Shown: one piece after another, positions 6,160 through 22,724 of the stretch
Layout: each line of letters opens with the position of its first letter
Position numbering within the stretch: position 1 is the first letter of the stretch
Origin: Armatimonadota bacterium
Lineage (GTDB): Bacteria > Armatimonadota > Chthonomonadetes > Chthonomonadales > Chthonomonadaceae
Length of the DNA: 64,000 bases
Reading direction: 5' to 3'
Assembly (NCBI GenBank): GCA_028871815.1
Contig: JAGWMJ010000005.1
Coordinates: 62,001 to 126,000 of the forward strand
Notes under the pieces: generated by a model
Told to the model about the DNA's origin: nothing
The model's database searches: none
Seen by the model: the letters and a program-made list of their open reading frames with translations, nothing else
Made by a program: the position numbers and the translations under genes

Positions 6160-8406
6160 ATGAGAGATGAGCTGATCGACAGCGGCCCCCAGTTCGGAAT
6201 CCGCGAATACCTTGAGATCCTTCGGCGACGCAAGGCGATCATCATCCAGACGCTGGTACTGGTGATGGTTGTTGGTCTCATCGTAACCTTCATGACGAAG
6301 CCGCTGTATCGCTCCACGACAAAGATTCTGGTCGAGGGGAAAAACATGGTGGTCGCCAGCATCAATGCCAACGACCCGATGAGCAACCTCTATCAGCCGG
6401 ACGTGGGACATGAGGTTCCGACGCAGCTGGAAGTAATTCAGAGCGCTTCCGTAGTCCGCAGCGCCATGGATGAAGCCGGCATTCCGCGGACGGTGCCGGG
6501 GCAGGTGGGCTCACCGGCATACCTCTCCGCCTCACAGGTGAATGACACCGACGTTCTGGAAGTGGATGCGGAGTCGCATAATCCAGAGTGGGCCTTTGCA
6601 CTTGCCCGTACCATTGAGCCAACGTACCTGACGTACGTAACCGGCAACCAGAAGGAGCAGGTGCTGACGGCCCTGCGCTTTGCATCGGACCAGTTGACCA
6701 AGGAGAACAAGGCGCTTGAGAACTCTGCGAACGCGTTAGAGGCATTCAAGCAGCATGCCGGCGTCGTCGGCGTGGAGACGGAGAAGGCGGCCCGCATCAA
6801 CGATGAGATCACCGCGCAGGCAACCGTGCGTAGTATTGAGGGCGAGCTGGCCGCCAATAGGGCGCGACTTGCCTCCCTGCAGGGCGATCTCACCTCGACG
6901 CCGGCGATGGTGACAACACCGCAAACCGTTACAAATCTGCAAGAGATCCAGAACGCTCAGGATCGGCTTGCGCAGCTTCAGCAGGAGCGTGCGCGTCTGC
7001 TTGTAAACTACAAGCCGAATTCGATACCACTTCAGAAGATTGGCGCGCAGATCGCGGACGCCACAACGGTTCTGAACTCGATACCGAAGACGGTATCCAC
7101 GATCAGCCGGCAGGTGAATCCCGAAGTTCAGAGCATCCAGGATCGTATTTCGCAGGCACAGGCTGACGTAGCTTCTTCAACGGCATCGTTGGCAGCCGCA
7201 CAACAGAAGGCTGCGCAGGTTTCGGCGGGACTCGGTCGCTTTTCCCAGATTGAGCACACGAATACCGACCTTCAGCGGGAGTACGACAAGCACTCAGCCG
7301 CTGTTGACACGCTCAGCACAATGGTGCTCGATCTGCGGCTGCGGGCCAATGCCGAGCACGACCCGGTTCTCACGATTTCCGCAGCTACGCCTCCGACTCT
7401 GGTTCGACCGCAGAAAGCGCTGTATCTTGTTCTCAGCCTGGTGCTCGGGTTGGTGCTGGGCGTGGCATTTGCCGTAGTTCAAGACTTCCTGGACGACAGG
7501 ATCCGCGATCCCGAAGAGGCACGGCGCATTACCGGCTCTCCGCCGCTGGGTTATGTTCCGCTTGCAGGTAACCAGAGCGCATTGCTTATCGAGCAGCCGC
7601 GCAGTGGCCTCGTGCTGGAGAGCTTCCGTGTGCTTCGCTCCAACGTGGGATTCGCGGCTGTAGATGCCCCGACAATGTCGCTCACCATCACCAGCACCGT
7701 TCCATCTGAAGGCAAATCACTAACATCCACCAATCTTGCCGTGGCCATGGCGCTGGATGGGCGGCGCGTCATTCTGGTTGACGCCGACTTGCGGCGCCCA
7801 ACGCTTCACCGTAACTTTGCCGTGAACAAGCATCCGGGCTTGACCAACATCCTGCTCGGTGAACTGAAAGCCAGCGAAGCCCTGATTGATACACGGGTCG
7901 AGGGTCTGCGCCTGCTCACATCCGGGCCGGTGCCGCCCAATCCCGCCGAGCTGCTGAACTCACAGGCAATGCGTCACCTTCAGAACGAGCTCAAGTCCAT
8001 GGCGGACGTGGTGATTTTCGACAGCCCGCCCTGCCTGGCAACTGCCGACGCGCAGGTACTGGCCAGCGGAACGGATGGAGTTATCTACGTGATGCAGTTC
8101 GGCGCCGCCAAGAAGTCTGAGGTGCGCCATTCGTTCGACTTGCTCAACCAGGCGCACGCACGCATGCTCGGCATCGTATATAACAAGGTAGACACTTCGG
8201 GTCGGAGCGGCGGATACTACTATGGCTACTATAGCCACTATAAGTACTACGCCTCGCCAGCGGCCGACGACCCCGGTGATGTTGGGGAAGGCGCGGCGGT
8301 TCGGTCGATTGGAGCCAATGGCGGCAACGGTTCGCATAACGGCGCAGCCCGGCAAAATGGCTCAGCCTCACATGACAAGCCGCAAGACGCCAACGGCAAG
8401 GAGTAG
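6160..8406 (+). CDS. Polysaccharide co-polymerase fused to a BY-type tyrosine kinase (Wzz/Wzc-like)
   Basis: Inner-membrane regulator of polysaccharide chain length and export, 748 residues. The Wzz domain starts at about residue 12. TM1 lies at ~26-45 and TM2 at ~420-440. A periplasmic coiled-coil region at ~165-390 lies between them. The cytoplasmic kinase has Walker A at 512-520 (STVPSEGKS), Walker A' at 538-546 (ILVDADLRR) and Walker B at 617-622. A tyrosine cluster at 686-697 has eight Tyr in twelve residues and is the autophosphorylation tail. After it comes a 50-residue Gly/Asn/Ala-rich end, so the cluster is not at the extreme C-terminus as is usual. It is the first gene after the promoter at 5919 and lies 4 bp before the export gene. 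No separate phosphatase gene is present. Confidence 0.95.
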   Translation: MRDELIDSGPQFGIREYLEILRRRKAIIIQTLVLVMVVGLIVTFMTKPLYRSTTKILVEGKNMVVASINANDPMSNLYQPDVGHEVPTQLEVIQSASVVRSAMDEAGIPRTVPGQVGSPAYLSASQVNDTDVLEVDAESHNPEWAFALARTIEPTYLTYVTGNQKEQVLTALRFASDQLTKENKALENSANALEAFKQHAGVVGVETEKAARINDEITAQATVRSIEGELAANRARLASLQGDLTSTPAMVTTPQTVTNLQEIQNAQDRLAQLQQERARLLVNYKPNSIPLQKIGAQIADATTVLNSIPKTVSTISRQVNPEVQSIQDRISQAQADVASSTASLAAAQQKAAQVSAGLGRFSQIEHTNTDLQREYDKHSAAVDTLSTMVLDLRLRANAEHDPVLTISAATPPTLVRPQKALYLVLSLVLGLVLGVAFAVVQDFLDDRIRDPEEARRITGSPPLGYVPLAGNQSALLIEQPRSGLVLESFRVLRSNVGFAAVDAPTMSLTITSTVPSEGKSLTSTNLAVAMALDGRRVILVDADLRRPTLHRNFAVNKHPGLTNILLGELKASEALIDTRVEGLRLLTSGPVPPNPAELLNSQAMRHLQNELKSMADVVIFDSPPCLATADAQVLASGTDGVIYVMQFGAAKKSEVRHSFDLLNQAHARMLGIVYNKVDTSGRSGGYYYGYYSHYKYYASPAADDPGDVGEGAAVRSIGANGGNGSHNGAARQNGSASHDKPQDANGKE

Positions 8407-8410
8407 CGGA

Positions 8411-9586
8411 ATGAAGAGGCACAGCCAAATTGCGGCTACGGCCGGCGCCATCGTCTGTTTGGCGCTGGCGTGGCGCGCCGCAGGGGCTCAGGAGACACCA
8501 TCCTCCTATCGGCTTGGAGCCGGCGATGTGATTGAGGTTACCGTACCTAACTATGTGGATACGGAAAAGGACCTGGATCAGGTACTTACCGTCTTGCCGG
8601 ACGGCACTATCACCTACCCCGAAATCGGCCGTGTGGTTGCGGCCGGCATTACGCCCGAGAAACTCGGCGCCGAGATACAGACCGTGCTCAGCAAGACGCG
8701 CAACAACGCGGACGTGCTGGTGATTGTCAAGGAGGTTCACTCCCGTAAGGTGAGCGTGGTTGGCGCCGTACACCAGCAAGGCCAGTACGACCTGGGACCA
8801 GGCTGGCGCGTTATGGACGCGATAGCCGCGGCCGGCGGACTTTCGACCGAGGTTCAGTGGACCAAAGGCCGATTGATCCGCGGACCATCTACGGTCGCGT
8901 TGAACCTTGTCGAGGCGCTCGCCCTGCCGAACTCCGACGCCAATCCAACGCTGCGCCCGGGCGACCTCGTTATTCTGGACCAGCAAGACGTGCACAACCA
9001 GGTGCATGTGCTGGGAGCCGTGGCGCGGGCCGGCGCGTACGATCTCGAACAGAACATGACGCTCTTCTCGCTGCTCTCTGAGGCCGGCGGCGCGTCGGAC
9101 AATGCAGCCCTGAAGCAGGTGTATGTATTGCGTAACGGCAAGCAGATACCGCTCGACCTGTACCCGGTGCTGGCGGAGGGCCGTGATGACCCAACCATCT
9201 CCACGTTCACGATGCATCCGGGCGACACACTCTTTGTACCGGTTATCCAGGCACAGTACGCGGTGATGGGCGATGTGCTCAAACCCGCCTACTACACGCT
9301 GCCGGAGAATCCCGCAGACGCCACGCTCCTCAAAGCCCTCAGCAGGGCCGGCGGTCAGTCAGCCGATGCCGACCTATCCAGAGCTGTGATCATCCATACT
9401 GCCGGCGGCCAGAATACAACCCAGAAGGTGAATATCGCGCAAATGCTCCAGCACGGGGATCTTGCCCCAAACCTGCGCCTGGCCGGTGGCGACGTGCTCT
9501 TCATACCGCCGAAGGGTCAAAAGCGGACTTTCGCAGATTTCTTCTATGCGCTCAGCGGTCTCTCGTACCTGCGAACCTTGTTCTGA
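8411..9586 (+). CDS. Wza-like polysaccharide export protein with SLBB domains
   Basis: Envelope export component, 391 residues from the ATG at 8411. An N-terminal signal peptide (basic MKRHS, hydrophobic stretch to about residue 22, cleavage likely after AAGA near 26) lacks a lipobox, so this is not a typical Wza lipoprotein. A Poly_export domain (YRLGAGDVIEVTV at ~33-45, through ~115) is followed by three SLBB repeats at about 118-195, 198-275 and 285-370. The C-terminal amphipathic helix that forms the Wza outer-membrane pore is not apparent; the protein ends YLRTLF. Together with the kinase upstream it makes the standard co-polymerase/exporter pair. The gene is followed by a strong terminator, so the ligase-like gene behind it is probably a separate transcript. 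Confidence 0.93.
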   Translation: MKRHSQIAATAGAIVCLALAWRAAGAQETPSSYRLGAGDVIEVTVPNYVDTEKDLDQVLTVLPDGTITYPEIGRVVAAGITPEKLGAEIQTVLSKTRNNADVLVIVKEVHSRKVSVVGAVHQQGQYDLGPGWRVMDAIAAAGGLSTEVQWTKGRLIRGPSTVALNLVEALALPNSDANPTLRPGDLVILDQQDVHNQVHVLGAVARAGAYDLEQNMTLFSLLSEAGGASDNAALKQVYVLRNGKQIPLDLYPVLAEGRDDPTISTFTMHPGDTLFVPVIQAQYAVMGDVLKPAYYTLPENPADATLLKALSRAGGQSADADLSRAVIIHTAGGQNTTQKVNIAQMLQHGDLAPNLRLAGGDVLFIPPKGQKRTFADFFYALSGLSYLRTLF

Positions 9587-9614: not shown

Positions 9615-9645
9615 GCAAACGGGGCGGCAAGGCCGCCCCGTTTGC
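9615..9645 (+). terminator. Strong intrinsic terminator-like hairpin after the export gene
   Basis: Perfect 14-bp arms gcaaacggggcggc (9615-9628) and gccgccccgtttgc (9632-9645) enclose a 3-base loop. The T run lies within the 3' arm (cgttt) and is not extended. It is placed 29 bases after the stop codon. Confidence 0.8.
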
Positions 9646-9903
9646 GCATCCGGCGGTAATTGTATAGCGCGGTTCGCGCAACGCCGGCAGTTTTTTAGCG
9701 ACCTACCCGATATTTCACCCAGATGGCACTCTTTTGGGTGTACAATATGGTGCTGCCACTGTGCCGGGGATGGCAGCGCTGTACTCCCCGGCATTACCCT
9801 AAACCCGCGCATGCGGATGTGCAAGGCACCGCATGCCATTTCGTGGACGGTTTGGCGCGGATGTGTAAGTCACCGTGCCGGCCGGCCAGGAGAAAGTTCA
9901 GGA

Positions 9904-12123
9904 ATGAAACGAAAGACTGAAACCTGGTGGGCGCAAGTGCTGCAGAATCGCCTCATAGCACTTGTCCTGGCGATGGTGGTCATAGTACCGCTGATCGCCA
10001 CTCCCGCCGATGGCCGCATCCATGGTGTGGCCGCATTCGCGTTCGAAGGATTGGCGATCCTTCTCTTTGGCACTCTAATCCTGCGGTCCAAGTGGGACCT
10101 TCGGCGGGAGAAGATTGTCGCGTTTCTCAAAACAGGCCCGAACCTGCCTATCCTGGCGCTTGGCGTCCTCGGTGGTATTTCGGTTCTGTATGCAGCCCAC
10201 AAGGGATATGCAGAGCAGGCGCTCCTTCAACTGGTCGCCGGCATTCTGATCTACTTCGTGGCTGCGTACCAGTTCCGCAGGTCTGAGCACCTGACCAAAC
10301 TGGTAGACACTGTCATGGCGGTAGGAGCTGTCGCAGCGATCTACGGCTTTGTGCAGTACGGGCTTTCGAGCACGCACTCGGTAGTCGGACCGTTCGGAAA
10401 CGACCAGCTGATGGGCTCGTTCCTGATGATCCTCCTGCCGCTGCTGGGCATCACCGCCCTTACCGAGAAGTCACCAGCACGCAAAAACGTGGCGATGGTG
10501 GTTACGGTAATGGTGGGCGCATGCCTCGCACTTGCCCACTCACGTAGCGCGTGGCTCGGCCTTACGGCCGGCGCCGCCGTTATTGGCGTACTGGCAATCG
10601 TGCTTGCCCGCCGCGGCACGCAGCTCTTCGGTCGGAAGGCCGACGTGGTGCTGCCGATCGCGATGGTGATTTCCGCCATTGCGCTGTTCCTGTTCCTGGC
10701 GCCGAACAGCGGCTCGATCCTCGATCGGGTTGCCTCAATCGGCAACGCCAACGGCCAAAGCACCTTCATTCAGCGCGAAACCCAGTGGGCCGGCAGTCTG
10801 AAGATGGTTGCTAACAAGCCAATCCTGGGATACGGCATCGGCCAGTATCCTCCGGATCAAGCGGCATTCACTCACGTGGGTGTTACAACCGCCGGCGCCA
10901 AGCTGATGGGCAGCAACGCAGTGCTCCTGCCATCGCTTCTCGAGCAGGCTCACGACTACTATCTGCAGCTTACGGCAGAGCTTGGCCTTACGGGCCTTCT
11001 GCTGATGCTGGCGGTTCTCGGCTCGTTCCTGACATTGGGCCTCATGAAGGTTCGATCGATGGACGCGGGCGTGCGCCGCAACGTACTTCTCGCCTCGATC
11101 GCCGCTATCGTTGCCTTTATGGTTGACGCAATGGCGAGTCCGTCGTGGCAGTTCGGTCAGATTTCGATGTTTATGTGGCTGATGCTGGGCGTTGGCGTAA
11201 GCTGCGCGCGCGGTCATCAGCGCCGGGATCGCGAAGAGGCAGAGGTAGCGGCGTCGCCGCGGCTCAGCCGGGCTACCGCCCTCGTGGGCGCAGGCCTTAT
11301 GGCAACCATGCTTCCCTCCGTGGTCTTCGCGAACATCGGAAACCGCTATGTGCCGCCGGTTAGCGCCACGCTGGGCGCCAGTCCGGATCCTGATCCGGGC
11401 GGAACACAGATCCAGCTGCAGGCGATCGTGCGATTCAACGATGGAAGCACCGTTGACTTCACCAACGACCCGAGCACGGCAACCTTCTCAGCGACGCGAG
11501 TCCGCGGCACGGGCCCGGTCGGGCAGCTGGGCGGACCGAACAACAGCGTGTACAGTCCGGCAGCCGGCGAAAACGATGAGATCCTCTTCAAAGTGAATCT
11601 CAGCGTGCTCGTAACCAGCCGGCAGACCGGCGGCGGTACGATCCACATGCTTCAGGCGTCCCGCGCCGTTGCCGTTGGGAACTTCGTAGTTACAGGTTCC
11701 TCGAGCAACACCGGCGCAGCCATCGCGGGCGGCATTGGCGGCGCAGCGCTTCTTTATGAAGTGTTCGCGGCGCATGGTGGTCCTGCCGCAGGTGGCGGAA
11801 CCGGGAAGAATGTGCTGATTCGGCCAGGTAACGCATCGGTAACTGAGGGGCAGAGCCAGGCGTTTACGCTGTGGGCACGCGTCAACGGCGACAAGCTTGT
11901 TGACGTTACGCTCAGCAAGTACACGCGGTTCACGGTGGAAGGTGGCCACGGCTACCTGACCGGCCCGAACGACTCGGTCTACCAATCGGTTGCCGGAGAG
12001 CCGGAATCGGTTACCGTGACGGGCGAATACAGCGGCCCCGAAGTTCAGGGCAGCGATACCAGCTCGCTTAAGGTTACCGAGGCCATACCCGGACCAGCAG
12101 GTACCAACGCAGGCGATCCGTAA
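9904..12123 (+). CDS. O-antigen ligase/polymerase-like membrane protein fused to two C-terminal beta domains
   Basis: A 739-residue protein from the ATG at 9904 (AGGAG upstream; the frame stays open to 9811). Residues 1-435 form a Wzy/WaaL-type membrane domain with about 12 helices, including the Wzy_C-type landmarks SRSAWLGL (213-220) and EQAHDYYLQL (347-356) in the large periplasmic loop. After a basic linker (439-456), one further helix (~458-476) leads to two beta-rich modules at about 485-592 and 635-725. Both contain a related core: GPNNSVYSPAAGE (544-556) and GPNDSVYQSVAGE (687-699). A Gly/Ala-rich hydrophobic segment at 605-622 separates them. They look like bacterial Ig-like modules and should be extracytoplasmic. 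A -10-like TACAAT at 9741 is the only upstream promoter hint. The gene would polymerise or ligate the polysaccharide exported by the genes upstream. Confidence 0.88.
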   Translation: MKRKTETWWAQVLQNRLIALVLAMVVIVPLIATPADGRIHGVAAFAFEGLAILLFGTLILRSKWDLRREKIVAFLKTGPNLPILALGVLGGISVLYAAHKGYAEQALLQLVAGILIYFVAAYQFRRSEHLTKLVDTVMAVGAVAAIYGFVQYGLSSTHSVVGPFGNDQLMGSFLMILLPLLGITALTEKSPARKNVAMVVTVMVGACLALAHSRSAWLGLTAGAAVIGVLAIVLARRGTQLFGRKADVVLPIAMVISAIALFLFLAPNSGSILDRVASIGNANGQSTFIQRETQWAGSLKMVANKPILGYGIGQYPPDQAAFTHVGVTTAGAKLMGSNAVLLPSLLEQAHDYYLQLTAELGLTGLLLMLAVLGSFLTLGLMKVRSMDAGVRRNVLLASIAAIVAFMVDAMASPSWQFGQISMFMWLMLGVGVSCARGHQRRDREEAEVAASPRLSRATALVGAGLMATMLPSVVFANIGNRYVPPVSATLGASPDPDPGGTQIQLQAIVRFNDGSTVDFTNDPSTATFSATRVRGTGPVGQLGGPNNSVYSPAAGENDEILFKVNLSVLVTSRQTGGGTIHMLQASRAVAVGNFVVTGSSSNTGAAIAGGIGGAALLYEVFAAHGGPAAGGGTGKNVLIRPGNASVTEGQSQAFTLWARVNGDKLVDVTLSKYTRFTVEGGHGYLTGPNDSVYQSVAGEPESVTVTGEYSGPEVQGSDTSSLKVTEAIPGPAGTNAGDP

Positions 12124-12182
12124 TCGCCCATCCGCTGCAGAGTGGACGGGCCTTGCACCGCCTTCCATTCGACGCATAGGAT

Positions 12183-12219
12183 AAAAGGCCGCCGCCCAGC
12201 AGTGGGCGGCGGCCTTTTT
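12183..12219 (+). terminator. Strong intrinsic terminator after the ligase-like gene
   Basis: Perfect 16-bp stem (arms 12183-12198 and 12203-12218; inner parts ggccgccgccca and tgggcggcggcc) with a gcag tetraloop, flanked by AAAA before and TTTTT after. It is the best-formed terminator in the window and could work in both directions. It closes the exopolysaccharide region. Confidence 0.92.
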
Positions 12220-12625
12220 GTCAGATTGTCGGACACGCTCGTAATCTCGAAGGTGCGTGCCCTCTATTGTCCGGCGGGTAGAAACCGTCAGGCTGGCGCC
12301 GCAATGCCGCCGTCGGCCTCGCCTGAATTTCGACGGTCGGCAAGCGCCGGCAGATCCCTCGCAGCGCTCCTGTTAACAGCGCACCACGGCGCTAAGCTAA
12401 AAACATTGGCTGGTGGAGAGTGTACGGCGACCAGACGCCCAACTGCTGGTAATGTGCCGCGCCGAACGCGTTATTTCAGCCCGGTAGTCGCAATAGCTCC
12501 AAGTGACCCCTCCGACAAGCGCTCCTCACACCGGAAGCATCTACGCGCGGAACAGCGGCGTAAGCGAATGGGAGATTGCCAAATCCGGGTATGGCTGCGA
12601 GGCAGTTAACTAGTTCAAAACCACA
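12220..12625 (+). other. Gene-free stretch between terminator and decayed fragment
   Basis: About 400 bases in which no gene, RNA or ordered repeat was recognised. The 155-codon plus-strand frame that crosses the terminator (12142-12609) reads through its stem and has no domain or ribosome-binding site. Confidence 0.45.
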
Positions 12626-12797
12626 CAACGGCGAACCACCGCTCGGTGTTAGGCTCACCACGTGCATGCGACTCAAGCGGAAGGTGGCCACGGGCTACCA
12701 ACGCGCGTGAGTAGCCCGGTCTACCAATAGGTTGGCGGCGATCCGGCAACCGTTACCTTAGCAGTCTCGTACGCAGAGGACCGGAAGTTCAGGGTCA
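12626..12797 (+). pseudogene. Decayed copy of the 3' end of the ligase-like gene (second beta domain)
   Basis: This segment aligns base by base with 11883-12054 inside the ligase-like gene. Both spans are 172 bases, starting at caacggcga and ending near gaagttcaggg. By eye about two thirds of positions match, with long exact blocks such as gaaggtggccacgg and cggtctaccaat. In the parental frame the copy has TAG (12728-12730) where the parent has a serine codon TCG, and small compensating indels. It has no start, no promoter and no downstream continuation. It is best read as the remnant of a tandem duplication of the gene or of its C-terminal module. Confidence 0.8.
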
Positions 12798-12981: not shown

Positions 12982-15900
12982 TTACGGGTTTACCGTAATA
13001 TACGCCGCGCGGGCAATGGAGAGGTAGGTGCCCGTGATGCGAACCACTGTGGTGACGGCTGGCGGTGATGTGACCACACGGAACGTCACGGAGCTGGAAC
13101 CGGCCGGCACCAGCACGTAGCGCGGCGGCAAAGCCACGCCCGGCGCAGATGACACCAGCCTCACGGTGACACCGCCAACCGGCGCAGTGCCGGAGAGGCG
13201 CACCGTACCGGTGGCGGAGGCGCCGCCGACCACCGTGGAGGGGCTGATGCTGACCGACACGAGGTGTACCGGCTGAGGGGTAACCGTGAAGGCCGCACCC
13301 AGCGAGGTCCCGCCGCCTGGCGTTGGATTGGTAACCGTCACTGAGAAAGTGCCTGCCACTGTGAGATCCGTCGCCGGGATGGCGGCAGTGAGCGACGTGC
13401 CGCTGTTGAATGTCGTCGTGAGCCCCGCCCCATTCCATTTTACGACGCTGGTGCTTACGAAACCGGTGCCGGTGACCGTAACGTTCGTCGCGCCGGTTCC
13501 CGCCATCACGGTCGACGGCGACAGACTGCTTATGACCGGCGATGGGTTGTTGATCGCAAACGACAGCGCATTGGATGCCGCGCTTCCCGGGTTGGTGGCC
13601 GTCACGGACGCCGTGCCGGTTGCCGCGATGTCGGTTGCCGGCACAGTGGCCTGAAGCTGCGTAGGACTGGTAACGGTGGTCGTGAGGCCGGTTCCGTTCC
13701 ATGCCACCACAGCACCGCTCTGGAAACCGGAACCGTTTACCAGCAGCGTGAAGCCCGGCCCGCCAACAATGGCGGACGAAGGTGAGAGGCTGGTCAGGGT
13801 TGGTGCGGCCGCGGCGAGCGAGATTTCCCATGCCGACCGGCCATGCGTGTATGCGGCCAACAGGTTCAAACTGGAGTTGAACGCCAGATCAGCAACCTGC
13901 GCATCGGCCAGGCCCGTGCCGAACAGGCTCCATTGCGTGGCCACGGTCGACTGATACACGCCATCATCCGTTCCCACCCAGACGGTGCCGTTCGTCCAGT
14001 TAACCTTGATCGCGTTTGTAGGTATGTCTGGCAGGTTGCCGGTTTCGTCCGTCCATGAGCTGCCGCTGTTCGAGGTAAAGAAGACGTGTCCCGTGCCGGC
14101 GGAACCGGTAAACCGGTCCCGCACGATATAGGCCTGTGCCGCGTTGGCCGGATTGACGCTGATATCCTGAAAGTGATCGGTGAAACCGGTCACATTCCTG
14201 GTCGCCCACGAACCACCATCGTTCGTCGTGACGTAGATGGAGCCGCCTGCGGAGGCATAGACTGTGCTTCCGCTCACGCCTACGCAGTTCACGGTGGCAC
14301 CAGGGTTGTTAAACCCGCTACTGCCGGCTACGCCGATTTCTTTCCAGGTCGTGGTGTCATTTGTGGTTTCCCAGACGCCGGTTGTGGGAAACAGCAGCCG
14401 CGAGGAGTTGGACGGATCCATCGTAAAGTGCGGGTAAAAGTCGGAGCTTTCGCCGCTCGGCGGCCCGGCGGAGTTCCAGGTGCTGCCGCCATCGGTAGAC
14501 TTGGCGAGGTCGTTACCACTGTATGTGTGGTACATGATGAGCGGGTTGGTCTGGTTGATCTTGCAGAATCCCCCATCGCCGCCATCAATCTCGGGCCAGA
14601 TGGTGTTGTTGTTGTACTCCTCGGTCCCGTCGTCCTGGCTTCCGGCTAAGGCGAACAGCGAGTTGGTCGGATGCAGGTCACCGCCGGTGAATTGAGTGGT
14701 CGCGAGGTTGCCGTTGATCGACTCCCACTGCAGGTTGGCGGGGCTCAGGGTGTCCAGCCGCCAGATGCCTCCGTCGCAGCCATTCAGCAGGCGGCCGGAG
14801 GCATCAAAGGTCAACGAATGTTCATCCGTATGCGGTCCGTTACCGGAGGAGTCGCTCTGAACGTTGCTCCACGTCGTGCCGCCATCCGTCGACTCCGCCA
14901 CGTTTTCGCCGCTGAAGTCGCCGGCGCCGGCGATGAAGACCACGCTGGCGTTAGTTGGGCTCACGCCGATCGGCATGTCGTACCATGCCTGTGGCTGCGC
15001 GACGTTGGGCGCAGAAGTCAACTGCGACCAGCTCGTGCCGCCATTGGTCGTCTTCCAGACACCAAGGATTCCGCTTGTGCTGATATTCTCCACAACGCTA
15101 TAGATCGTGCTGGGCGCCGATGGAGCAATCGCAATATGGATCCAGCCAACATTGCCATTGGTGTGCCCGTTGGGGTGGCCGGACAGCAGTGTCCACGTGC
15201 TTCCACTGTCCGTAGATTCGTAGACGCCGTTGTTGGCGCTGCCCCCGACGTTTCCGACCGCACAGTAGACGGTACTCGGCGTTGTTGGGTTTATAGCCAC
15301 ATCGCTGAATGGGTCGATCGACGTTGTAATCGCCGACGTCATCTTGGTCCACGTCGAACCGCCGTCCGTCGATTTGTAGATACCGGGACCGCCGCCGTAG
15401 CTTCCGTTCGCGCCGAAGTCTCCCATGGCTGCGTAGACGATGTTCGCGTTTGTGGGATCGACCGCGATACGCGACGTTGTCATACCGACGAATGCACCGC
15501 CTCCGGTTTCTAATGTCCACGTAGAACCGGCATCGGTAGAGACCAGAATACCGAGGCCATACCGTGAGTCACCGGCATTGTTGGCCTCACCGGTACCGGC
15601 ATAGATCACGTTGGCGTTGGATGGCGCTACAGCGATAGCGCCCATCGCGAGGTCGGGCTCCGTGTCCGTCAGGGGCACCCAGCTCGTACCGCCGTTGGTC
15701 GTTTTCCATACGCCGCCGCCGGCCGGCGCCAGATAGATCGTATTTGCATCGGTGGGGGAACCGGCCGCGTCAGCCACCCGGCCGGACATGCCGGACTCTA
15801 CGCCGAAGCCGTTGAACTCCATAAGCGGCGCAGGACCGATAAGCTGCCACGTTCCACCCAGCTGCGGTGTGTAAAAACCACGCGGCGGCGGAAGCGTCAC

Positions 15901-16041
15901 CTGGTTGAGGAGCATTTGACTGCGCGTCGCGCGCACGTGCAGGATGGGCCGGTGGTTCTGTGCAATTGCCGGAAGGCAGGGGGTGAAACAGGCAGCCAGC
16001 GCGCTTGCCAGTACGGCCGATCTCCGAATTGAAGCGTTCAT
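12982..16041 (-). CDS. Large secreted Asp-box beta-propeller protein with TIG/IPT domains
   Basis: A 1019-residue protein. The ATG at 16041 has GGAG 8 bases upstream and opens a clear signal peptide (MNASIRRS, hydrophobic core, AIAQ near residue 28); the frame is open to 16119. From about residue 90 to 740 there are at least ten BNR/Asp-box units of the form S/T-T-D/N-x-G-x-S/T-W (for example STDGGSTW, TTNGGTSW, STDSGSTW), as in sialidase, VPS10/sortilin and photosystem-assembly propellers. Two TIG/IPT modules follow (SLSPSSAIVGG and SLSPSTVMAG starts), then a last Ig-like module to the C-terminus. No sialidase catalytic set, sorting signal or membrane anchor was seen. A carbohydrate-binding or adhesive surface role is inferred. 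Confidence 0.9.
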   Translation of the reverse strand: MNASIRRSAVLASALAACFTPCLPAIAQNHRPILHVRATRSQMLLNQVTLPPPRGFYTPQLGGTWQLIGPAPLMEFNGFGVESGMSGRVADAAGSPTDANTIYLAPAGGGVWKTTNGGTSWVPLTDTEPDLAMGAIAVAPSNANVIYAGTGEANNAGDSRYGLGILVSTDAGSTWTLETGGGAFVGMTTSRIAVDPTNANIVYAAMGDFGANGSYGGGPGIYKSTDGGSTWTKMTSAITTSIDPFSDVAINPTTPSTVYCAVGNVGGSANNGVYESTDSGSTWTLLSGHPNGHTNGNVGWIHIAIAPSAPSTIYSVVENISTSGILGVWKTTNGGTSWSQLTSAPNVAQPQAWYDMPIGVSPTNASVVFIAGAGDFSGENVAESTDGGTTWSNVQSDSSGNGPHTDEHSLTFDASGRLLNGCDGGIWRLDTLSPANLQWESINGNLATTQFTGGDLHPTNSLFALAGSQDDGTEEYNNNTIWPEIDGGDGGFCKINQTNPLIMYHTYSGNDLAKSTDGGSTWNSAGPPSGESSDFYPHFTMDPSNSSRLLFPTTGVWETTNDTTTWKEIGVAGSSGFNNPGATVNCVGVSGSTVYASAGGSIYVTTNDGGSWATRNVTGFTDHFQDISVNPANAAQAYIVRDRFTGSAGTGHVFFTSNSGSSWTDETGNLPDIPTNAIKVNWTNGTVWVGTDDGVYQSTVATQWSLFGTGLADAQVADLAFNSSLNLLAAYTHGRSAWEISLAAAAPTLTSLSPSSAIVGGPGFTLLVNGSGFQSGAVVAWNGTGLTTTVTSPTQLQATVPATDIAATGTASVTATNPGSAASNALSFAINNPSPVISSLSPSTVMAGTGATNVTVTGTGFVSTSVVKWNGAGLTTTFNSGTSLTAAIPATDLTVAGTFSVTVTNPTPGGGTSLGAAFTVTPQPVHLVSVSISPSTVVGGASATGTVRLSGTAPVGGVTVRLVSSAPGVALPPRYVLVPAGSSSVTFRVVTSPPAVTTVVRITGTYLSIARAAYITVNP

Positions 16042-16523
16042 TACAGGTCTCCGTAGATTCAAAACACATGGGCGCTTCCACCAGATACCGGGCGAACGCC
16101 TCCGGCGCGTGGAACCCATCTGTACGGCGATGGCCGGCGCTGCGGTATGACGCCACCTACCCTTCCGCTACGAGGCGGGGTGGTGCGAGATAAGACGCGC
16201 AGTTGAGCCGGTTCGATTGTCCTTGCCGCCGATGCGGCTGGTTCAGCGGTGTATTCACCACCGGAGATGGATTATACTCCTTTGTTTTGCCAGGCAATTC
16301 GCAAAAAACATCGGGCAGTGCTCGCGCGTAGTTAGCAGGAGGTCGCCACTTTCGCCGCGTGACGCGGGCGACATCGTATGTCGCGCGACACCGGGAGATA
16401 CTGAGCTCTTCGGCGTGACGCTCCGGTGCTCGTTGCTTGGCGCGGGCACGGGAAGCACAGGCTGAAGCGCTCTGCGACCTGGCCGGTACGGGTCTGCAAG
16501 GCTGGCTTGACAAGAGGTCTCAA
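16042..16523. other. Divergent intergenic region between the Asp-box and beta-propeller genes
   Basis: About 480 bases between divergent genes. No coding region is convincing. The one clear element is the minus-strand -10 at 16271-16276. No riboswitch or RNA gene was recognised. Confidence 0.5.
16271..16297 (-). promoter_or_regulatory. Possible promoter of the Asp-box gene
   Basis: On the minus strand a perfect -10 TATAAT (16276-16271) has TTGCCT (16297-16292) 15 bp upstream. The spacing is short, so the -35 is weak. It would leave a leader of about 220 bases. Confidence 0.35.
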
Positions 16524-18668: not shown

Positions 18669-20150
18669 CTACAGCTTGACGCTTAGGCGCGTCACCGATG
18701 CGGCGGGTAGTGTGACCACGTCACTCTCCTCATCGTGTTGCAGCGGATGGCTGGCGACAGCGTCAGGATGCTGGAACGTGTTGTGCGCGTGATAATCACC
18801 ACCGGGTGCTGCGAGCGTCTCAGCCGCCGTTATCCTGACACGGCCGCTCGCGGCGCGAAGTTGAACATCAACCGGACACGTGGCGGAGCTGTTTGTCAGC
18901 GTCAATGTGGCGGATCCGCGTGCCAGGCTCGAGGCCGAAGCTGCCACCAGCGGCATGTCAAACCGGCCGGGCGCCAGCTCGGAATCCACCTGTGTTCGCA
19001 GCGCATCGGCGCCCTGATGCGGCGCGAACATCCGGTACACATGCCATGTTGGTGTGCGAACAAGGCGGTCTTCCTCAGTCAGCAGCACCGCCTGCAGTAC
19101 ATTGATGGTCTGCGCTATGTTCGCCATGGTCACCACTGCAGCATGATTGTTGAAGATGTTGAGCGTAATGGCTGCGACCAGAGCATCGCGGATGGTGTTC
19201 TGCTGCCACAGGAACGAGGGATTCTCGCCAGGCGTTGCAGGATGCCATGTGCCCCACTCATCAATAATCAGGCCGATCTCACCGTCCGGGTCGACCTCGC
19301 GGAGCGCAGCCGACTGTGCCCGAATGAGGTTCTCGATGCCGGCGGCCCTGGCCAGCAGCTCTGTCCACTGGTCCTCGGTGTATTCCAGTGCCGAGCCGGC
19401 GGTGCCGCAGTAGTAGTGCGCGGCGAAGCCATGCACACGCTCGCCTTGCCCGTAGTCGCGCCGGAGGCGGGCAAAGAATCGGCGCGTCCATTCCAGGTCA
19501 TTGCCATTTGGTCCGCACGCAATCAGATGGAGTTGACTGCCGCTGTAGTTCCGCATGAAGGTGGCGTAACGCCGATAATCTGCGGCATAATCCTCGGGCG
19601 AGAGGTTACCGCCGCAGCCCCACAGCTCGTTGCCCACGCCCCAGAATCGCACCTTGAAGGGTTCGGCGCTCCCGTTTCGCGCACGAAGCTGCGCCAGCGA
19701 GCTGTCGCCGGCATAGTTGCAGTACTCAACCCAATCGCGCAGCTCGCGAGGCGAACCGCTGCCAACGTTGCCACACAGATACGGTTCCGCGCCGGTCATG
19801 CGACACAGATCGAGGAACTCGTGTGTACCGAATTCATTCGATTCCAGCGTCTCGCCCCAGTGGATATTCACCGTGGTGGGCCGATGCTCGCGCAGGCCGA
19901 CCCCGTCGCGCCAGTGATAGTCATCGGCAAAGCAGCCGCCCGGCCATCGGATTACAGCCGGCCGTATTTCCGACAGTGCCTGGATCACATCATTGCGTAT
20001 GCCGCGTGTGTTCGGAATGCGCGACTGTTCGCCAACCCAGCATCCGCCGTAGATGCAGGCGCCGAGATGCTCCATGAAGTGGCCATACAGATTCGGCGAG
20101 ATACGGCCGATCGGCTCATCCGCCAGGATCGTTACCGTGGCTGTAGTCAA
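18669..20150 (-). CDS. GH51 alpha-L-arabinofuranosidase
   Basis: Retaining glycosidase that removes terminal alpha-L-arabinofuranosyl groups from arabinan, arabinoxylan or their oligosaccharides. It has 493 residues, a normal length, and no signal peptide, so it should act in the cytoplasm. The (beta/alpha)8 domain carries the acid/base Glu175 in GVGNELWG and the nucleophile Glu298 in IIDEWG; IRWPGGCFADDYHW (67-80) is the conserved substrate-binding segment. The C-terminal beta sandwich starts near residue 390. The start is TTG with GGGGAG six bases upstream. It lies 21 bp after the GH127 gene on the same strand, so the two arabinofuranosidases are probably one transcript. Confidence 0.95.
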   Translation of the reverse strand: MTTATVTILADEPIGRISPNLYGHFMEHLGACIYGGCWVGEQSRIPNTRGIRNDVIQALSEIRPAVIRWPGGCFADDYHWRDGVGLREHRPTTVNIHWGETLESNEFGTHEFLDLCRMTGAEPYLCGNVGSGSPRELRDWVEYCNYAGDSSLAQLRARNGSAEPFKVRFWGVGNELWGCGGNLSPEDYAADYRRYATFMRNYSGSQLHLIACGPNGNDLEWTRRFFARLRRDYGQGERVHGFAAHYYCGTAGSALEYTEDQWTELLARAAGIENLIRAQSAALREVDPDGEIGLIIDEWGTWHPATPGENPSFLWQQNTIRDALVAAITLNIFNNHAAVVTMANIAQTINVLQAVLLTEEDRLVRTPTWHVYRMFAPHQGADALRTQVDSELAPGRFDMPLVAASASSLARGSATLTLTNSSATCPVDVQLRAASGRVRITAAETLAAPGGDYHAHNTFQHPDAVASHPLQHDEESDVVTLPAASVTRLSVKL

Positions 20151-20171
20151 AAGCAGCTCCCCAGATTCAAG

Positions 20172-22595
20172 TTAATCCGTATCGCGGAAAGTATCGGGCC
20201 CGGATACTCGCCACTGCTGGATGCCGGCCGCCCAATCCGGCTTCAGCTGCAGCTCCAACCGTAGTGCGGTTGTAACGACCGGTTGAAACGAAACGCGGCA
20301 CCATCCATCATCCCGGATTGGCCAACCGGCATTCTGGTCCGAACGGGATACAGGCGCCCAGCCGCTGGCGGTACGGTACATGAGTCGCCAGGAGGCCGGC
20401 AGGCGGCACTCACCGCGCCCGGTGTCATCAAACCAGTAGACCTGCGACGAGTCGATGGTAACGGGATGCTTCCACGTGTACTGCACCCACTCAGCTGTGC
20501 CTTTATGCGGCCACCAGTGGCACAGCGCCGGCGGCTGCTGACCAGAGCTGGCAGGGTCACGCCCGTTGTTGATTCCCCAGGGCTGGCAGTTACCGCTCAC
20601 ATACGACATGCTGACTTGTGCTGACCGCTCCAACGTGCCGTAGATCGGAGCCGGCGGCTGTTCCGGAATCCAGATCTCCATAGCGTCCGGCGTGCGATTA
20701 TCCCAGCAATACCACGGAATCGCGCGGATTGGAACGCGCTTTACGCTCGATGCCGTCTCGTAGAGACCGCCGGGCCAATCCCGAGAGCCCTGCGTCTCTC
20801 CCGTTCCGGCTATGGTGACCACGCCATTCAAAAGGTGGGCATCGTAGGCGCAGGTAAGCGCGCTCTGTACAGGCAGCGCCAGGGCGGCGACCGGCGCCGA
20901 CTGGTCGACGCCCTCCAGGCAGTATATTAGTGGACCACGTGCCAGCGCGACTTTGCCGACGTCATTCTTCACGAGCGGATTTGCCTGAATCCGCCGGACC
21001 GGCATCGGCATGTAGTAACGCACCGAATCGCCGTTACGCCACACGCGATCGATTGCGATATAACCGCGCTTGACCGCCGGCGGCATCAGGCTGCCATTGA
21101 CGCGCACCTTCTCACCGCGGCACCACCCCGGAGCCCGCAGATTGAGAGCGAAGCGACCCGGTTTCTTGAGCTGAACCCGAATCTCCACGAGCCCGCTCCA
21201 GGGATAGACGGTCTTCACTGCAAGTGTTACGGGCTCTCCATCGACGCGCGTCTGTACGGTGCCCTGCACAAACAGGTTCAGGTAGATGGATCCTGGGCCA
21301 GAGGCGGCAACATACTCGCCGAGAGCCGCAATCGTCCGTGCGGCATTCGGCGGGCAGCATGCACATGAGAACCAGCCGGAACGGGCGTAGCCGCCGGGAC
21401 ACGCCAATGGGTTGCCATAGAAGAAAGTATGGCCATCCAGCGAGACTCCATCGAGCATCCCATTGTAGAGCGCGCGCTCCATCTCGTCGGCATATCGGCC
21501 GTCGCCAAACAGCAGATTCATCCTGTGCGCCCACAGAATCATGGCGACAGAGGCGCAGGTCTCCTGATACGCGCTCTGGTTCGGCAGGTCGTAGTCCGTG
21601 GTGAAGCCTTCGTTTGACCCGGTGGACCCCACCCCGCCCGTAACATACATCCGCTTCTCGGTGGTGTTGTCCCAAATGCGGCGAAGGGCCGTCAACAGCG
21701 TTTCGTCGTGCGTCATAGCGGCGACATCGGTGGCGCCGGCCATCAAGTATCCGGCTCGCACGGCATGTCCCTGCAAGACGCGACGGTCGACGATGCGTTG
21801 ATTATCGAGCCAGTACGTACCGTCGTACTGCGACAACGCTGTGTGGTGCTCCGTGGCAAAGAACTTTGTGCCACGATTCATGATAAAAAAGCGCGCCAGG
21901 CGGAAGTAACGTCGCCTGCCGGTTACACGGTAGAGCTTCATCAGCGCCAATTCGATTTCCGGATGGCCGGGATAGCCCATGCGCTTGCCGGGCCCGGAGC
22001 CGAATATGGAAGAGAGGTGATCGGCCAGGCGCGTCGCCACATTCAACAGATCGCGGTGACGCGTTGCCTGGTACCACGCGACAGCGGCCTCAAACATGTG
22101 TCCTGCGCAGTACATCTCGTGATTGTCGCGCAGGTTCACATACTCCACGCCGGGGTGGTTTACCTCGTACCAGGTGTCCAGGTAGCCGTCGGGCCTCTGA
22201 GCGGCGGCTATCAGGCGCACGATCGCCTCTACTTGCGCTTCCATGCCCGGGTCGGGGTGGGTAGCCAGCGAGTACGAGACGGCCTCGATCACTTTATACA
22301 CATCGGAGTCCATGAAGACTGGACCCGAATAGCCGCTGTGAATGTTGGCAGCCGCTAACCGAAAATCGGTAAGGTTGCCGGCCTGTTTGAGCATATTGAG
22401 GCTGTGCGGTAGCGACACCCGCCGGATCGCCTTTTGCCTTGGCGCCCAGAAGCCCTTACCGATGGTCACGCTGGTGAGCGGGATCTCGGTGAGGTTCGCC
22501 GTCCGCGGCTGCTGAGCCAGGAGCGGCACAGCCGTAATCGAGGTGGTCAGAAGCGCAGTAACAAGCGTAGCGTGCGGCAGAAAGCGGATTCTCAC
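20172..22595 (-). CDS. GH127-family beta-L-arabinofuranosidase, secreted
   Basis: Cysteine-dependent glycosidase (former DUF1680) that cleaves beta-L-arabinofuranosides such as those on hydroxyproline-rich plant glycoproteins. The GTG at 22595 has GGAGGG eight bases upstream and starts a signal peptide (MRIRFLPHATL to about residue 28); the frame remains open to 22631. In this numbering the zinc/nucleophile set is Glu345 and Cys347 (YQETCAS) and Cys413-Cys414 (CACCPPN). The family (alpha/alpha)6 barrel spans about 35-420, followed by beta domains and a C-terminal ~140-residue galactose-binding-like module (VDSS-type QVYWFDDTG segment). The length of 807 is more than the ~650 of the shortest family members because of that module. 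Partner of the GH51 gene. Confidence 0.93.
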   Translation of the reverse strand: MRIRFLPHATLVTALLTTSITAVPLLAQQPRTANLTEIPLTSVTIGKGFWAPRQKAIRRVSLPHSLNMLKQAGNLTDFRLAAANIHSGYSGPVFMDSDVYKVIEAVSYSLATHPDPGMEAQVEAIVRLIAAAQRPDGYLDTWYEVNHPGVEYVNLRDNHEMYCAGHMFEAAVAWYQATRHRDLLNVATRLADHLSSIFGSGPGKRMGYPGHPEIELALMKLYRVTGRRRYFRLARFFIMNRGTKFFATEHHTALSQYDGTYWLDNQRIVDRRVLQGHAVRAGYLMAGATDVAAMTHDETLLTALRRIWDNTTEKRMYVTGGVGSTGSNEGFTTDYDLPNQSAYQETCASVAMILWAHRMNLLFGDGRYADEMERALYNGMLDGVSLDGHTFFYGNPLACPGGYARSGWFSCACCPPNAARTIAALGEYVAASGPGSIYLNLFVQGTVQTRVDGEPVTLAVKTVYPWSGLVEIRVQLKKPGRFALNLRAPGWCRGEKVRVNGSLMPPAVKRGYIAIDRVWRNGDSVRYYMPMPVRRIQANPLVKNDVGKVALARGPLIYCLEGVDQSAPVAALALPVQSALTCAYDAHLLNGVVTIAGTGETQGSRDWPGGLYETASSVKRVPIRAIPWYCWDNRTPDAMEIWIPEQPPAPIYGTLERSAQVSMSYVSGNCQPWGINNGRDPASSGQQPPALCHWWPHKGTAEWVQYTWKHPVTIDSSQVYWFDDTGRGECRLPASWRLMYRTASGWAPVSRSDQNAGWPIRDDGWCRVSFQPVVTTALRLELQLKPDWAAGIQQWRVSGPDTFRDTD

Positions 22596-22724
22596 GAGGT
22601 TGGCCCTCCAAAGGCGGAATCGGCGGCGCAAACGTGCCTGTCTGCGCCGTCAACACCGCCAGGCCAACTTCGCCAAACCACACCGAGATGCCTGCCCCGC
22701 CCGGTTGCGCAGGCACGGCGCCAT

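What the first reader, a model, noticed from the sequence alone, without database searches (positions are those of the whole stretch)
9904..12123. O-antigen ligase/polymerase fused to two extracellular beta domains
A complete Wzy/WaaL-type membrane domain (with the SRSAWLGL and EQAHDYYLQL landmarks) is continued, in one open frame, by an extra helix and two Ig-like modules that share a GPN-(N/D)-SVY-x-x-x-AGE core. O-antigen ligases normally end after the last helix. The modules could hold the acceptor, bind the polymer or anchor the enzyme to the envelope, so the fusion may represent a new polysaccharide-attachment architecture.
Basis: partly seen in the sequence, partly recalled or inferred. 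Interest (0 to 1): 0.6.

Follow-up and report, generated by a model that had tools for sequence, protein, structure and literature searches.

The report
Sugar polymerase with periplasmic Ig-like tail
A membrane enzyme that most likely joins sugar units into an exported polysaccharide carries an extra membrane helix and small Ig-like (antibody-fold) modules on its end, a real and conserved variant in the bacterial phylum Armatimonadota that may link chain building to the export machine.

Summary
The fusion is real. The gene at 9904-12123 (739 aa, Chthonomonadaceae, Armatimonadota) has a complete Wzy_C/WaaL-type membrane core (PF04932 E 5e-16; best solved fold is WaaL 7tpg), then a cytoplasmic Arg-rich linker, a 13th helix and two beta modules sharing GPN(N/D)SVYxxxAGE. 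It is not a frame error. Five orthologues in four related genomes carry the same join in one frame with one module (two are cut by contig ends). In 31 genomes of the order the module was found only inside Wzy frames, never alone. Two sister genes lack the tail. More distant Wzy genes of the phylum carry other beta domains at the same place, with homology unproven. The gene follows wzc and wza, an order kept in all five tailed orthologues (one has wza alone on its contig), so an exopolysaccharide polymerase is more likely than an O-antigen ligase. Topology puts the modules in the periplasm. They fit a Big-type Ig fold, but weakly. The best mechanism is that the tail reaches from the polymerase into the Wzc/Wza export channel or holds the nascent chain. 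This part is inferred. It is a new variant of a known kind. Cleavage of the 13th helix as an internal signal peptide is not excluded.

The parts
6160..8406 (+). wzc-like polysaccharide co-polymerase with C-terminal tyrosine-kinase-type ATPase
   Evidence: Pfam Wzz 2.7e-10, AAA_31 1.7e-9
8411..9586 (+). wza-like outer-membrane polysaccharide export protein (Poly_export + SLBB), N-terminal signal-peptide-like stretch
   Evidence: Pfam Poly_export 5e-17, SLBB_2 8.5e-33
9615..9645 (+). strong hairpin between wza and wzy (attenuator/terminator-like)
   Evidence: fold -30.3 kcal/mol, z -5.8
9904..11208 (+). Wzy/WaaL-type membrane core, 12 helices, large periplasmic loop 266-362 with H350
   Evidence: Pfam Wzy_C, AlphaFold2 helices, Foldseek to 7tpg E 7.5e-6, positive-inside count
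11209..11268 (+). Arg-rich cytoplasmic linker, residues 436-455
   Evidence: positive-inside count
11269..11331 (+). 13th hydrophobic helix, signal-peptide-like end PSVVFA|NIG (residues 456-476)
11344..11667 (+). Ig-like module 1 (GPNNSVYSPAAGE core)
11704..11772 (+). Gly/Ala-rich hydrophobic stretch between the modules (about residues 601-623)
   Evidence: mean hydropathy up to 1.57 in a 19-residue frame
11806..12096 (+). Ig-like module 2 (GPNDSVYQSVAGE core); the counterpart of the single module of relatives
   Evidence: AlphaFold2 pLDDT 72 beta sandwich; blastp to the G006 module E 2e-16
12180..12222 (+). terminator hairpin after the gene
   Evidence: fold -36.3 kcal/mol, z -7.8, followed by T run

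Best explanation
The gene encodes a Wzy-type polysaccharide polymerase (WaaL-fold membrane enzyme) of an exopolysaccharide export unit, wzc-wza-wzy. After the usual 12 helices the chain goes through a cytoplasmic linker and a 13th helix back to the periplasm and ends in two Big-type Ig-like modules. Shown by computation: one continuous frame, an intact core, conservation of the fusion in relatives, a periplasmic side by charge rule, and conserved neighbours. Inferred: the modules act as a periplasmic tether. Wzy is known to sit inside the Wzz octamer lumen (PMC10030265), so they would either dock on the Wzc periplasmic barrel or Wza, or hold the growing chain and pass it to the channel. In this lineage the single ancestral module was duplicated.
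For: Wzy_C E 5e-16. WaaL 7tpg is the only Foldseek match below 0.001. Invariant R214, R275, R291, H350, E359 in eight rows. Cytoplasmic short loops hold 18 K+R in 68 residues, periplasmic ones 2 in 37, which places the tail in the periplasm. The same fusion is in G006, G009, G013 (two copies) and G018. The module profile finds only Wzy-fused copies in 31 genomes. In the tailed copies wza lies directly upstream in 6 of 6 and wzc in 5 of 6 (the sixth is cut by its contig end), while the two tail-less sister genes have neither beside them. The tailed six form a clade (97/95), with the tail-less pair as sister. A tail at the same place in three close species of another family is under purifying selection, dN/dS 0.04-0.08.
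Against: No sequence family in Pfam claims the modules, and the Ig fold rests on a 72-pLDDT model with middling matches. Elsewhere in the phylum tail-less Wzy genes also sit by wzc or wza (L072, L074), so the tail is not needed for that pairing. No wzx or initiating transferase was found beside this unit. Contact with Wzc/Wza or polysaccharide is untested.
Confidence: 0.6

Rival explanations
1. It is a ligase that moves a finished polymer from its lipid carrier to an envelope acceptor, and the Ig-like modules bind the acceptor or polymer.
For: Same fold family as WaaL; a remote sequence match to a solved oligosaccharyltransferase, 9rmk. The unit has no wzx or initiating transferase beside it, and the genome has two other Wzy genes in loci with their own flippase.
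Against: Direct partnership with wzc and wza, the secreted-polymer export pair, in all tailed copies of the order; no acceptor gene recognised nearby.
Confidence: 0.22
2. Polyprotein: the 13th helix is an internal signal peptide that signal peptidase I cuts (VFA|NIG), so that enzyme and Ig-like protein are made in fixed ratio and then separate. (This can be true together with the polymerase reading.)
For: All nine tails inspected, from four families, have an Arg, a hydrophobic run and a [small]xA end; five of the six order-level tails also have a Pro six residues before it.
Against: A home-made cleavage-site score did not rank this site above ordinary helices, and the exit of helix 1 has the same xxA pattern. 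Tails of family f15 have a plain helix without it.
Confidence: 0.15
3. Two genes joined by a sequencing or assembly error.
For: The 13th helix looks like a signal peptide, as would be seen at the start of a separate gene.
Against: Same join in five orthologues from four other genomes; no separate gene for the module in 31 genomes; smooth codon-position G+C.
Confidence: 0.01
4. The Gly/Ala-rich stretch between the modules is a 14th membrane helix, so module 2 faces the cytoplasm.
For: Hydropathy 1.57 over 19 residues.
Against: The relatives' single module, closest to module 2, directly follows the outward helix 13, so its ancestral side is periplasmic.
Confidence: 0.05

Closest known systems
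WaaL O-antigen ligase (PDB 7tpg) and Wzy_C family PF04932
   Same: Membrane core, catalytic-type Arg and His landmarks, large periplasmic loop.
   Different: A 13th helix and periplasmic Ig-like modules; neighbours are wzc and wza.
Wzy polymerases of Wzx/Wzy pathways (e.g. WzyE with WzzE, PMC10030265)
   Same: Partnered with a Wzz/Wzc-type co-polymerase.
   Different: WzyE is known as a membrane protein in the Wzz lumen; nothing like this tail is described in the papers I could read.
Wzy_C proteins with a TPR tail, such as L003 of the same genome
   Same: A soluble domain after the membrane core.
   Different: TPR-like helices (weak Pfam matches, below cut-off) instead of beta modules.
Bacterial Ig-like (Big) domains, e.g. 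Leptospira LigA 8gyr, Pfam Big_4
   Same: Weak sequence match (E 0.03 to LigA; E 0.026 of the G018 module to Big_4), similar sandwich (Z 4.8 over 74 residues, rmsd 3.4).
   Different: Below all family cut-offs; fused to a polymerase rather than to an adhesin.

Membership tests
Wzy_C / WaaL-fold enzymes (PF04932) | Profile match above the curated cut-off | tested here: met
   59.2 bits against 31.7
Wzy_C / WaaL-fold enzymes (PF04932) | WaaL-like fold of the membrane core | tested here: met
   Foldseek 7tpg_B E 7.5e-6, prob 1.00; the model is of moderate confidence
Wzy_C / WaaL-fold enzymes (PF04932) | Conserved Arg and His of the active site | tested here: inconclusive
   R214, R275, R291, H350 invariant in eight rows; not mapped residue by residue on WaaL
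Wzy polymerase of a Wzx/Wzy export pathway | Gene next to PCP (wzc) and OPX (wza) | tested here: met
Wzy polymerase of a Wzx/Wzy export pathway | Gene next to wzx and an initiating transferase | tested here: not met
   family matches lie on other contigs of the genome; pathways can be split, so this lowers but does not exclude
Wzy polymerase of a Wzx/Wzy export pathway | Polymerising activity | not testable with these tools
   needs a mutant and polymer analysis
IctB family (TIGR00947) | Score above the equivalog cut-off | tested here: not met
   73.2 bits against 366.4
Bacterial Ig-like (Big) domains | Pfam match above cut-off | tested here: not met
   no family for the window tail; G018 tail Big_4 14.5 bits against 22.1
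Bacterial Ig-like (Big) domains | Ig-like beta sandwich | tested here: inconclusive
   AlphaFold2 pLDDT 72; best Z 4.8 incl. LigA, Foldseek none below 0.001

The most novel reading that the evidence does not exclude
The polysaccharide polymerase carries its own periplasmic handling arm: Ig-like modules that enter the Wzc/Wza channel and set or pass on the chain, or that are cut free by signal peptidase as a partner made in 1:1 ratio.
Probability: 0.25. Interest if true: 0.6.

Novelty: new variant of a known kind. Interest (0 to 1): 0.42.

Why it matters
How a Wzy polymerase hands its product to the export channel, and how chain length is set, is open. A lineage in which polymerase and a periplasmic domain are one chain offers a physical handle: deleting or swapping the modules would test whether a periplasmic arm of Wzy takes part in length control or export. 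It also marks a conserved polysaccharide unit in Armatimonadota that I found in no paper I could search.

Tried and rejected
Frame error or joined genes: rejected by orthologues. Signal-peptidase cleavage by a home-made score from E. coli signal peptides recalled from general knowledge: does not discriminate; the [small]xA pattern recurs at the exit of helix 1. Homology of the tails of other families (f15, f9) with this one: hhalign probability about 1%, so not shown. Structure of the modules within the full-length model: pLDDT under 40, unusable. First genome-contig scan with the single protein found nothing; with the alignment it found six loci. Papers: none in the held library describes a Wzy-Ig fusion or Wzy in Armatimonadota; the WaaL structure paper and the topology-mapping paper are not held. 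Phyla other than Armatimonadota were not searched for the architecture.

Full report
WHAT IS THERE. The frame at 9904-12123 encodes 739 residues, with a Shine-Dalgarno-like AGGAG near 9888. Pfam finds Wzy_C (59.2 bits, cut-off 31.7) and nothing else. The NCBIfam match to IctB is far below its cut-off. The gene is bounded by two strong hairpins, 9615-9645 and 12180-12222. Upstream on the same strand lie a wzc-type co-polymerase with kinase-type ATPase and a wza-type export protein. Codon-position G+C is even through the join.

IS THE FUSION REAL. Whole-genome searches show that the window belongs to a Chthonomonadaceae genome (relatives' titles; phylum Armatimonadota by my own knowledge of that family). 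Orthologues at 37-46% identity exist in G006, G009, G013 (two copies) and G018. All run from the Wzy core through an Arg-bearing linker and a hydrophobic helix into a beta-rich tail in one frame. G009 and the second G013 copy are cut by contig ends. G010 and G007 stop right after helix 12. A profile of the module matches only these Wzy frames in the 31 genomes of the order, twice in the window and once each in G006, G013 and G018, never a separate gene. The stated refutation ('many relatives where the two parts are separate genes') therefore did not occur.

CORE AND TOPOLOGY. The AlphaFold2 model of the full protein is moderate for the core and useless for the tail. Its best match among solved structures is the WaaL ligase 7tpg, E 7.5e-6, the only one below 0.001. 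By sequence, the family profile finds an oligosaccharyltransferase, 9rmk. R214, R275, R291, H350 and E359 are invariant in eight rows. With 12 helices in the core and the N-terminus inside, short cytoplasmic loops hold 18 Lys+Arg in 68 residues and short periplasmic ones 2 in 37; the linker 436-455 holds five and helix 13 then leads out. The modules are therefore most likely periplasmic.

THE MODULES. Modules 1 and 2 share GPN(N/D)SVYxxxAGE. The single module of G006 is closer to module 2 (41% over 87 residues, E 2e-16) than to module 1 (E 7e-7), so module 2 is the ancestral one and module 1 an added copy (inference). A model of module 2 with three further rows is a nine-strand sandwich, pLDDT 72. 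Foldseek has no significant match, and the aligner's best rows include Leptospira LigA at Z 4.8 over 74 residues, the same protein that the sequence profile ranks first at E 0.03. The G018 tail touches Big_4 at E 0.026. A Big-type Ig fold is thus likely but not proven.

SPREAD. In 291 genomes of the phylum, 24 have this Wzy clade. Tails also follow an extra helix in families f15 and f24, and f9 has ASH/HYDIN-type and other beta tails. The f15 and f9 tails are not detectably homologous to the window's. On the tree the Ig label changes at least four times over well-supported branches, so the place after helix 12 looks like a site where beta domains are gained, swapped or lost. In three close f15 species the tail is under purifying selection, dN/dS 0.04-0.08, against 0.02-0.03 in the core.

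NEIGHBOURS AND FUNCTION. In the order, tailed genes follow wza directly in 6 of 6 cases, with wzc before it in 5; the sixth contig ends there. The two tail-less sister genes are elsewhere. In other families the link is loose: some tail-less genes sit by wzc or wza, and several tailed ones sit by a glycosyltransferase instead. The genome has two other loci with flippase, polymerase and initiating transferase, so this unit may be one part of a split pathway. I prefer polymerase over ligase because wzc and wza serve secreted polymers (established knowledge of the Wzx/Wzy pathway). Since WzyE sits in the lumen of the WzzE octamer (PMC10030265), a periplasmic arm on Wzy would lie where the chain grows towards Wza. 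Binding to Wzc, Wza or polymer is inference.

CLEAVAGE. Helix 13 ends in a signal-peptidase-like [small]xA in all nine tails inspected. A simple score could not tell it from ordinary helix ends, and helix 1 ends alike, so cleavage stays open.

Noticed in passing
window 12626-12794 (+): A decayed copy of part of module 2 lies about 500 bases after the gene: 69.6% identical over 171 bases to 11883-12050, E 4e-20 in a local comparison, with a stop codon inside. It points to repeated duplication of the module.
   Followed up: yes
window 12982-16119 (-): Large secreted-looking protein with a Sortilin-Vps10-type match and, by eye, IPT/TIG-like repeats at its end, convergent with the Wzy gene.
   Followed up: no
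window 18669-22631 (-): Two arabinose-releasing enzymes side by side: alpha-L-arabinofuranosidase and GH127 beta-L-arabinofuranosidase.
   Followed up: no
L016 385-2889 (-): Wzy_C protein of another family in the phylum with ASH/HYDIN-type Ig domains as its tail, a different beta domain at the same place.
   Followed up: partly
L053 9968-11299 (+): Tail-less sister gene ends at a TAG; the next codons (DFHSSTTEVA) resemble the linker of the tailed G006 gene (FYSSTREVA), which suggests loss of a former tail.
   Followed up: partly
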